A stretch of DNA of 64,000 nucleotides from NCBI GenBank assembly GCA_947500415.1, contig CANMRT010000001.1, forward strand, positions 770,982 to 834,981, written 5' to 3'. Source of the stretch: an uncultured Roseicyclus sp. (GTDB lineage: Bacteria; Pseudomonadota; Alphaproteobacteria; Rhodobacterales; Rhodobacteraceae). Each line of letters starts with the position of its first letter. Position 1 is the stretch's first letter. The position numbers and the translations under genes were made by a program. Below are positions 61,274-63,210 of the stretch, one piece after another. The notes under the pieces were generated by a model that saw only the letters and a list, made by a program, of their open reading frames with translations, was not told the origin of the DNA and searched no databases.

Positions 61274-61639
61274 ATGAAAATTGCAGAGGCAGCAACGGCC
61301 TGCGGACTATCCGCCCACACGATACGTTTCTATGAAAAATCGGGAATGCTTCCGGAAATTGAACGCGGCCAAGACGGTCATCGTCGATTTTCGCCTCGAT
61401 TGATCGAATGGCTGACGTTGCTTTATTGGCTGCGCGAGACGGGCATGCCTTTGGCAAAGATGCAGCGGTTCGCAGCACTCGCAAAAATGGGTGAGCAAGG
61501 TGTCGCCGAACGACGGCAAATCCTGGAGGACCACTCTGCCACCCTTAGGGCGCGCCGCCGCGCAATTGAGAAGTGTGAAAATGTCCTTGCCGTCAAGATT
61601 GCAAGCTACGGTCGGAAAACGGACGGGGTCGCTCAATGA
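61274..61639 (+). CDS. MerR family transcriptional regulator
   Basis: A 121-residue regulator. N-terminal winged helix MKIAEAATACGLSAHTIRFY EKSGMLPEIERGQDGHRRFS, then a coiled coil (EQGVAERRQILEDHSATLRA RRRAIEKC). It lacks the C-terminal metal-binding Cys cluster of CueR/MerR, so the signal is not a typical metal. GAAGGAG precedes the ATG. Coupled by ATGA to the solute-binding-like gene. Confidence 0.92.
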   Translation: MKIAEAATACGLSAHTIRFYEKSGMLPEIERGQDGHRRFSPRLIEWLTLLYWLRETGMPLAKMQRFAALAKMGEQGVAERRQILEDHSATLRARRRAIEKCENVLAVKIASYGRKTDGVAQ

Positions 61640-62367
61640 GGTTCGCCTATCTCATCGAGCCCCCGTTCAACTATGTCGATGCGTCAGGCCACGTGACAGG
61701 CTGCGATGTGGAGGTCGCACGTCATGTTTTCTCAGAACTGGGCATCCACAATTACCAGCTTGTTGAAACAGCGTTCGCTGATTTGCTGCCTGGCTTGTGC
61801 GATGGCCGATGGCGAATGACGACAGGTCTGTTTGGCACCGATGAACGTCGGGATATGGCGAAGTTCAGCCTTCCAATCTGGGCGCTGCCCGACGGATTAC
61901 TTGTGGCACAAGGCAACCCGCTTGGCCTCTCTGGGTATCGCTCCATCGCAGAAAGCAGTGGTCGCCTCGCCGTCATCCGCGATCAGTATCAGTACCGCAC
62001 CGCTATTGAGCAGGGTATCGCCGCCGACCAACTCTTGATGCTTGAGGACTACCCCGAAGCCGCAGCCGCCGTCCGCGAAGGACGTGTCGATGCCTATGCA
62101 AGCGTTGCCATGGCGCATTTTGGGTTTATTGCTCAAAACCCTGATTGGCCAGTCGAAGGGATTGCTGTCCCAAGCGAAGAAAAGCCCCCTTCATTCGGAG
62201 CCTTCGCGGTTGCGCGGCACGATGCGCTTTTCCTGAAAGACGTCGATACAGTCCTCCATGAATTTCTTGGAAGCAGGTCTCATCGCGAAATGGTTGGCAG
62301 CTTTGGTTTCGATGATAGCCAGATCGACCTAGTCATTCCTGCCACAACGCAGTGCGCGCGCCCATAG
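61636..62367 (+). CDS. Cytoplasmic solute-binding-protein homologue (PF00497-type)
   Basis: A 243-residue protein with the type II periplasmic binding-protein fold: MRFAYLIEPPFNYVDASGHV TGCDVEVARHVF at the start, and the usual VDAYASVAMAHFGFIAQNPD hinge region. It has no signal peptide, lipobox or membrane helix, and no permease or ATPase lies nearby, so it is unlikely to feed an ABC transporter. Translationally coupled to the MerR gene, it may be a cytoplasmic ligand sensor or an enzyme derived from the fold (as with cyclohexadienyl dehydratase). Binding specificity unknown; polar amino acid-like by family. Confidence 0.85.
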   Translation: MRFAYLIEPPFNYVDASGHVTGCDVEVARHVFSELGIHNYQLVETAFADLLPGLCDGRWRMTTGLFGTDERRDMAKFSLPIWALPDGLLVAQGNPLGLSGYRSIAESSGRLAVIRDQYQYRTAIEQGIAADQLLMLEDYPEAAAAVREGRVDAYASVAMAHFGFIAQNPDWPVEGIAVPSEEKPPSFGAFAVARHDALFLKDVDTVLHEFLGSRSHREMVGSFGFDDSQIDLVIPATTQCARP

Positions 62368-62637
62368 TCGACCCAGGGAAATTCAAATTTCCAAATGAAG
62401 ACCGGTGCAGTGCTAGAGATGCTTCATCGTTTTTCGAATTTTTATATTTAATATCAGATGTTTAAACCGGAACTGTCGATAGACTGGTCCATGACCTTCA
62501 CGCCCCCGTCAGCGATCCTCACGCGTCCGTGTCCGGAAGGTAAGGCTCGCCTCCATGCCCCTGTGCAACCGGTCCTGTCATAACCCTCTCATCGAAAAAA
62601 AACACACACACCGGACCCCCGTAGGAGACACCAGACA
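62368..62637. other. AT-rich intergenic region upstream of small peptide gene
   Basis: No conventional gene seen. The part from 62430 to 62465 is unusually AT-rich for this window (TTTTTATATTTAATATCAG) and is a possible promoter. A run of eight A then alternating CA at 62595-62610 precedes the ribosome-binding site of the small gene. Confidence 0.4.
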
Positions 62638-62745
62638 ATGACCCGCAAAACCACGCTCACCGCCCTCGCAACTCTCGCTCTCATCGCCATCAGCGCTGAC
62701 GCCGCGCTGGCCGATTGCTACTGGCCCGTCTACCGCAACTGGTAA
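62638..62745 (+). CDS. Very small secreted peptide (35 aa)
   Basis: A 35-codon gene too small for usual gene-length cut-offs. GTAGGAG lies about ten bases before the ATG. It has a textbook Sec signal peptide (MTRKTTLTALATLALIAISA, then DAALA) and would release the ten-residue mature peptide DCYWPVYRNW, which has three aromatic Trp/Tyr pairs, one Cys and a net charge near zero. A strong terminator follows 63 bases later, and 270 bases of leader precede it, so it seems to be a dedicated transcription unit. I recognise no known family. Confidence 0.65.
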   Translation: MTRKTTLTALATLALIAISADAALADCYWPVYRNW

Positions 62746-62807
62746 TCCGTTTCCCTCTCCCCCAAGCCGCGTTCCATCCGTCCCTCCCTGTCCCTAGAAC
62801 GCGCACA

Positions 62808-62842
62808 AAACGCGGGCCGTCCCCTCCGGCCCGCGTTTTTTT
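62808..62842 (+). terminator. Strong intrinsic terminator after small peptide gene
   Basis: AAACGCGGGCCG and CGGCCCGCGTTT form a 12-bp stem with a seven-base loop, followed by a T7 tract. It separates the small peptide gene from the TfoX-like gene. Confidence 0.88.
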
Positions 62843-62877
62843 GTCCAATGATCGCAGGATTGAAGTATCCTCTACCC

Positions 62878-63210
62878 ATGGCAGATGATCTCCTGACAAG
62901 GTTCCGCGCGATTGCCGAGGTCCACGACGGCGTGCAGGTGAAGGGTAAAAAGATGCCCTATACCGCCCTCAACGGGAACATGTTCGCTTTCATCGCCCCC
63001 GAAAATGCATTGTGCCTGCGTTTTGATGAGCCAACGCGCGCAGGGCTTGCCGAGCGTTTTGGCAGCGGGCCGGTGTTGCAATATGGATCGGTCATGCGAG
63101 GCTACGTGGCGATCCCGGAAAAGGTCCTGCACGACGAGGGGGAGGATCTTTTTGCGCAAAGCCTCGCCTTCGTGAAAAGCCTGCCCCCAAAGGCCACAAA
63201 AAAGCGCTGA
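62878..63210 (+). CDS. TfoX N-terminal domain protein
   Basis: A 110-residue protein of the TfoX_N family: [40 protein letters not shown] and [20 protein letters not shown]. Family members include a competence regulator domain, but single-domain forms like this are uncharacterised. ATG at 62878 begins right after a terminator; 62848 would add ten residues from the terminator region. Confidence 0.85.

What the first reader, a model, noticed from the sequence alone, without database searches (positions are those of the whole stretch)
62638..62842. 35-residue secreted peptide gene with dedicated terminator
A signal peptide of 25 residues followed by only ten mature residues (DCYWPVYRNW), a good ribosome-binding site, a long leader and a strong T7 terminator. 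Such a tiny aromatic, Cys-containing product could be a signalling peptide, a bacteriocin-like fragment or a membrane-acting peptide. The gene is below usual length cut-offs and easily missed.
Basis: seen in the sequence. Interest (0 to 1): 0.65.

Follow-up and report, generated by a model that had tools for sequence, protein, structure and literature searches.

The report
Tiny exported-peptide gene in Roseicyclus
A 35-codon gene that annotation would easily miss is real and under selection in several species of one bacterial genus; it probably makes an exported ten-residue peptide whose job is not yet known.

Summary
Window 62638-62745 encodes MTRKTTLTALATLALIAISADAALADCYWPVYRNW, with AGGAG before it and a 13-bp terminator after it. 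The genome is a Roseicyclus. The gene was found in 5 of 13 genus genomes. Its end, ADCYWPVYR[N/S]W-stop, is otherwise invariant; the signal region has diverged by substitutions and five extra codons. Changes are mainly synonymous in this frame only (11:4, P 1.2e-4; 9:1, P 4.7e-5). In 864 kb of this genome it alone passed a post hoc signal + SD + terminator filter. No convincing copy appeared in 392 family genomes of other genera or, beyond Roseicyclus, in an 84,980-species pattern scan. A relative inside the carrying group lacks it, probably through loss. Export is inferred from sequence only. The decapeptide has no net side-chain charge, which argues against a cationic antimicrobial; its strict conservation suggests a specific partner outside the cytoplasm. 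A second lineage-specific micro-ORF, P1, lies upstream in 4 relatives. Attenuation, sRNA-only and toxin readings are less likely but not all excluded.

The parts
62498..62559 (+). Conserved upstream block, strongest from CTCACG (62518) to GCCTCCATGCC; probable promoter/regulatory region, sigma factor not identified
   Evidence: Conserved in all 5 genomes with the gene, and kept in G000 although the sequence further upstream differs. GTGTTCCGAAGGTAAGGC at <=3 mismatches is no commoner elsewhere in the genus than the pattern read backwards.
62555..62641 (+). Upstream ORF whose TGA overlaps the start codon of the peptide gene (ATGA); possible translational coupling, weak
   Evidence: Ends at the overlapping TGA in 4 of 5 genomes, in-frame fusion in G010; amino acids poorly conserved.
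62623..62627 (+). Shine-Dalgarno AGGAG
   Evidence: Read in the sequence; purine-rich stretch (AGGAG or GAAGGA) at the same place in all five.
62638..62745 (+). 35-aa peptide gene (called P2 here): predicted Sec signal peptide plus decapeptide
62638..62712 (+). Signal-peptide codons: R3 K4, hydrophobic core, ALA
   Evidence: Best 12-residue Kyte-Doolittle mean 2.5, and 2.18 in G010; A-x-A before D in both lineages. Inspection, no trained predictor
62713..62742 (+). Mature decapeptide DCYWPVYRNW
   Evidence: 9 of 10 residues invariant in 5 genomes; position 9 is N in G000 and S in the other four, the S written TCC in G001/G005 and AGC in G009/G010
62807..62839 (+). Intrinsic terminator hairpin (T run 62836-62842)
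   Evidence: 25-nt core identical in G000, G005, G009, G010, one extra C in the loop of G001

Best explanation
P2 is a genuine monocistronic micro-gene restricted to part of the genus Roseicyclus. Its 35-40-aa product is exported after translation through the Sec or YidC route. Signal peptidase I cuts after A-x-A and leaves the decapeptide DCYWPVYR[N/S]W in the periplasm or outside the cell, where it acts as a sequence-specific ligand or effector of a protein partner; the single Cys may pair through a disulfide. Supported by comparison: it is coding, it is under purifying selection, and it has its own terminator. Inferred: export, cleavage and a periplasmic or extracellular role. Guessed: a protein partner rather than a membrane target.
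For: In-frame synonymous excess: G000/G005 11 syn: 4 nonsyn, P 1.2e-4; G005/G001 9:1, P 4.7e-5; G000/G001 6:5, P 0.035; no such excess in the other two frames (the pairs are not independent). Mature part invariant but for N/S, with Ser kept through two codon families. The signal region keeps MTRKT, hydrophobicity and A-x-A while the rest diverges with five extra codons in G009/G010. Terminator core kept, with one A-U to G-C exchange in the lower stem. Only passing ORF in 864 kb (post hoc filter). One D and one R: no net side-chain charge.
Against: A ten-residue mature part is very short for a signal-peptidase substrate (general knowledge); no peptide or transcript data. No dedicated exporter or receptor seen beside it. 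The downstream gene and the upstream neighbourhood differ between carriers. Between the two lineages the signal part shows no clear purifying selection (16-17 of 25 codons differ by amino acid). Only five sequences, two of them near-identical; 8 of 13 genus genomes show no copy.
Confidence: 0.6

Rival explanations
1. An uncleaved single-span membrane micropeptide, perhaps a type I toxin-like or membrane-regulator peptide, with the aromatic tail on the periplasmic side.
For: Short, monocistronic, hydrophobic, lineage-restricted. Type I toxins are diverse in length and sequence, and some carry cysteines (PMC8309996, passages seen).
Against: A-x-A before the conserved part is kept in both lineages although the residues around it changed. 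Conservation sits in the tail, not in the hydrophobic segment. No antisense RNA recognised: Rfam lists only one tRNA in the window, though a new antisense RNA would not be in Rfam.
Confidence: 0.18
2. The RNA is the functional product: a terminator-ended sRNA with a short, secondarily useful ORF (dual-function RNA).
For: Terminator and upstream block are about as conserved as the core codons; pyrimidine-rich stretches in the 3' part.
Against: Coding signal in one frame only. The stretch between stop and terminator arm is 65-66 nt in three genomes but 29 nt in G009/G010. Rfam gathering search: no match here.
Confidence: 0.1
3. A leader peptide with an attenuator that controls the next gene by ribosome stalling.
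For: ORF followed by a terminator before a downstream gene; Trp, Tyr and Cys codons near the end; in three genomes TGGCCCGTC in the core is the best partner of the terminator arm.
Against: That pairing is matched by 36, 39 and 47 of 200 shuffles and is not the best partner in G009/G010. The downstream gene differs: yebC in G001/G005, a TfoX_N-like gene in G000/G009/G010. A 35-aa chain would hardly leave the ribosome tunnel (general knowledge).
Confidence: 0.06
4. A chance ORF.
For: Very short; no copy found in most relatives.
Against: Synonymous excess and invariant C-terminus across species.
Confidence: 0.03

Closest known systems
Bacterial small ORF-encoded proteins (SEPs), as mapped by Ribo-seq in the alphaproteobacterium Sinorhizobium meliloti (PMC10117765: start of abstract, passages)
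   Same: Short genes that are poorly annotated and hard to detect (abstract start)
   Different: No comparison with that study's set was made; P2 has no match in Pfam, NCBIfam or PADLOC at E<=1
Type I toxins such as IbsC, ShoB, HokB (PMC8309996, passages seen)
   Same: Short hydrophobic product; some have cysteines; sequences poorly conserved between families
   Different: Here conservation lies in a post-A-x-A aromatic tail; no antisense antitoxin recognised; toxicity untested
RRNPP communication propeptides of Firmicutes (start of abstract of PMC10075063 in a listing)
   Same: A short secreted precursor gives a short peptide (recalled)
   Different: Those sit beside a receptor gene (abstract); none was seen beside P2; Gram-negative host; no pro-region evident

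Membership tests
Sec-exported, signal peptidase I-processed small protein | Positive n-region, hydrophobic core, A-x-A cleavage motif | tested here: met
   R3 K4; Kyte-Doolittle 2.5 and 2.18 in the two lineages; ALA or AMA before D. Motif inspection, not a trained predictor
Sec-exported, signal peptidase I-processed small protein | Actual cleavage and release | not testable with these tools
   Needs mass spectrometry or a tag
Lipoprotein (entericidin-like) | Lipobox with a small residue directly before Cys (recalled) | tested here: not met
   D precedes C27 in all five
Any named protein family | Match to Pfam, NCBIfam, PADLOC or PHROGs | tested here: not met
   0 families at E<=1 in Pfam, NCBIfam and PADLOC; in PHROGs one unnamed family at E 0.28, on residues 1-26 only
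Type I toxin-antitoxin | Antisense RNA antitoxin paired with the toxin mRNA | tested here: inconclusive
   Rfam lists only one tRNA in the window; one minus-strand promoter-like site (62479 to 62450) where shuffles give a mean of 1.0
Type I toxin-antitoxin | Toxicity on overexpression | not testable with these tools
   Bench test
Attenuator leader peptide | Alternative antiterminator pairing, conserved | tested here: not met
   only pairing to the terminator's 5' arm was tested
Attenuator leader peptide | Constant downstream target gene | tested here: not met
Cationic antimicrobial peptide / bacteriocin | Net positive charge | tested here: not met
   One D and one R in the decapeptide
Cationic antimicrobial peptide / bacteriocin | Immunity or export genes nearby | tested here: not met
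   Neighbours scanned: CitMHS/TrkA_C permease, MerR, SBP_bac_3, weak TfoX_N, one without a Pfam match, YebC; genes further away not scanned

The most novel reading that the evidence does not exclude
P2 and the upstream micropeptide P1 are a pair: P2 releases a secreted decapeptide signal (a peptide pheromone in an alphaproteobacterium) and P1 is a small membrane partner, forming a minimal communication or self-recognition cassette that is gained and lost among Roseicyclus species.
Probability: 0.07. Interest if true: 0.75.

Novelty: new member of a known kind. Interest (0 to 1): 0.4.

Why it matters
It is a clear comparative case for a protein-coding gene of 35 codons whose strict constraint lies in a 10-residue, probably exported tail. 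If the peptide is released, it would be a Gram-negative secreted decapeptide of no family found here. It also shows that genus-level comparison can rescue genes below annotation cut-offs, and it brought out a second one (P1) beside it.

Tried and rejected
Distant homologues. The profile search of 394 family genomes gave 33 genomes (35 matches) at E<=0.05. Apart from the window's own (3.1e-23), the best is E 4.6e-4. Of the 34 other matches I translated 5 (L032, L035, L040, L041, L047), plus L016; none was a short secreted peptide with the core. The 29 unread ones end at profile position 29 or before, that is, mostly in the signal part. In one search, 21 of 61 genomes matched at E<=1; 5 were at E<=3.9e-6, the rest at E>=0.06 and treated as chance. 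The 84,980-species scan gave 37 records, 3 of them Roseicyclus copies; the other 34, and the 1 viral record, were translated and none joins a signal-like stretch to the core. The pattern demands CYWPxYRxW, so looser relatives would be missed. Plasmids (DNA of 62480-62850) and phages (protein): no match.

Upstream block as a regulon motif: rejected; 21 matches at <=3 mismatches in 13 genomes against 42 for the pattern read backwards. Terminator as a repeated genus element: rejected; one copy in each of 4 genomes, none in the other 9 (G001's copy is missed because of its inserted C). Attenuator: not supported. P1 elsewhere: in the genus 6 of 13 genomes matched at E<=1, 4 of them at E<=9.4e-13 and G004 and G008 only at 0.25 and 0.05; in the family 2 of 394 at E<=0.02, neither convincing when read.

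Trees. The first yebC tree had four rows on the wrong strand and was discarded. The corrected yebC tree is poorly resolved (one-clade AU p 0.046). The permease tree lacks G008, whose start motif my script missed, and holds two G007 copies; that script stopped with an error after the tree was printed. The group tested was named because it carries the gene. The filter was written after seeing the gene; the best A-x-A it scored ended at residue 22, not 25; one stretch overlaps the window by 981 bases; the reversed control gave more signal-like ORFs (81) than the real sequence (37).

Full report
What is there. Window 62638-62745 (+) is an ATG-to-TAA frame of 35 codons. AGGAG lies at 62623-62627. 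About 60 nt after the stop comes a 13-bp hairpin with a run of seven T: the fold of 62746-62850 is -32.4 kcal/mol against -16.1 +/- 2.4 for shuffles, z -6.9 (hairpin). The predicted anatomy is R3 K4, a hydrophobic core, ALA, then DCYWPVYRNW.

Is it a gene? The protein is found in 5 of 13 genus genomes: G000, G001, G005, G009, G010 (E from 8.9e-19 to 3.9e-6). The core DNA pattern finds the same 5 of 13. The five proteins share MTRKT at the start (G001 begins with TTG) and ADCYWPVYRxW at the end. The middle of the signal part differs between G000/G001/G005 and G009/G010, with five extra codons in the latter, aligned as 3 + 12 nt. In the close three, changes are mostly synonymous in this frame (11:4, 6:5 and 9:1; P 1.2e-4, 0.035 and 4.7e-5) and not in the other two frames. 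The 25 signal codons of G000 and G005 differ at 12 codons, none changing the amino acid. Against G009/G010 the signal part differs at 16-17 of 25 codons by amino acid, yet the decapeptide differs only at N/S. Ser at position 9 is TCC in G001/G005 and AGC in G009/G010, which points to selection on the amino acid.

Is it unusual in its own genome? A filter for 25-60-residue frames with a basic start, hydrophobic core and A-x-A gave 37 ORFs in 864 kb (of 4.01 Mb), 3 with a Shine-Dalgarno match, 1 with a terminator, and 1 with both: this gene. The reversed sequence gave 81, 6, 0 and 0. The filter was post hoc.

Surroundings. In G001 and G005 the order is CitMHS/SLC13-type permease (divergent), P1, conserved block, P2, terminator, yebC. 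In G009 and G010 a TfoX_N-like gene follows P2 and yebC lies about 3 kb on. In G000 a MerR-family gene and a family-3 solute-binding protein gene (61274-62367) lie between permease and block, P1 is not found, and a TfoX_N-like gene precedes yebC (YebC family; the TfoX_N match is below Pfam's cut-off; the name SLC13 is recalled). In 7 of the 8 genomes without P2 (G002, G003, G004, G006, G007, G011, G012) permease and yebC are divergent neighbours 120-350 nt apart; in G008 they are 1.5 kb apart with another reading frame between. The permease tree puts G003 in a group with G000, G001 and G005 (100/100) and rejects the five carriers as one clade (AU p 0.0002). G003 keeps a collinear 12-nt match to the P2 3' untranslated part of G005 (11 nt in G001), although the global alignments did not place it there. 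Loss in G003 is thus the simplest reading, on modest evidence. Whether the gene is older than the genus or moved between species is open.

P1. Upstream of the block in G001, G005, G009 and G010, starting 210-225 nt before P2, lies a 22-codon frame (MIKLTIILIAGALSLSTLPFFC in G001; positions). In-frame synonymous excess: G001/G010 12:7, P 5e-4; G010/G005 15:11, P 0.002; G001/G009 10:9, P 0.01; G009/G005 12:13, P 0.02; not G001/G005 (7:14, P 0.27) or G010/G009 (3:1, P 0.075). The pairs are not independent. G005 uses GTG and is the most diverged; it may be decaying. From memory, P1 recalls the Ibs toxins in length and composition; PMC8309996 gives IbsC as 19 residues with an alpha-helix (passages seen). 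No antitoxin was looked for near P1. P1 has no match in PHROGs or PADLOC at E<=1 or NCBIfam at E<=0.01.

How it most likely works. The constraint pattern between the two lineages (free signal, fixed tail, kept A-x-A) is what an exported peptide precursor shows. A tail with no net side-chain charge, fixed at 9 of 10 places, suggests a specific protein partner rather than membrane lysis. A 35-residue chain is barely longer than the ribosome tunnel (general knowledge), so export would be after translation. None of this was tested by experiment. The leader-attenuator reading fails two tests: the best pairing to the terminator arm in G000, G005 and G001 is matched by 36, 39 and 47 of 200 shuffles and is not the best in G009/G010, and the next gene is not constant. 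The overlapping upstream ORF ends on the P2 start in 4 of 5 genomes but is fused in frame in G010 and poorly conserved, so coupling is only a possibility.

How far it reaches. Pattern DCYWPxY: 1 of 394 family genomes, the window's own. That sample holds mostly one genome per genus (393 genera), so a patchy presence in a sister genus could be missed. The genome-collection scan found only Roseicyclus copies among 37 records. Families. A literature search for the string DCYWPVYR found 0 papers. Searches on Roseicyclus genomes, small proteins in Rhodobacter with ribosome profiling, and secreted short peptides showed nothing on this gene in the listed titles and abstract starts.

Verdict. A real, lineage-restricted micro-gene, probably for an exported decapeptide; function open. 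Moderately interesting.

Noticed in passing
L145 (G010), L146 (G009), L147 (G001), L148 (G005), about 1501-1569; not found in the window's genome: A second micro-ORF, P1, 22 aa and hydrophobic (MIKLTIILIAGALSLSTLPFFC-like), starting 210-225 nt before P2, with in-frame synonymous excess in 4 of 6 pairs.
   Followed up: partly
61274-62367: A MerR-family regulator (best NCBIfam match NmlR, below cut-off) and a family-3 solute-binding protein with no obvious signal peptide overlap by 4 bases and lie between permease and P2 only in the window's genome among the five carriers.
   Followed up: no
62878-63210: Small TfoX_N-like protein (Pfam E 4.6e-4, below cut-off) found in 3 of 13 genus genomes, each time directly after P2, although P2 also occurs without it.
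   Followed up: partly
62555-62641: Upstream ORF whose stop overlaps the P2 start (ATGA) in 4 of 5 genomes.
   Followed up: partly
L207 and L213 (G007): The 83%-complete G007 assembly holds two permease copies: one on C25 (89% identity, an in-frame TAA noted) and one on C8 beside yebC (72%); possibly a mixed bin.
   Followed up: no
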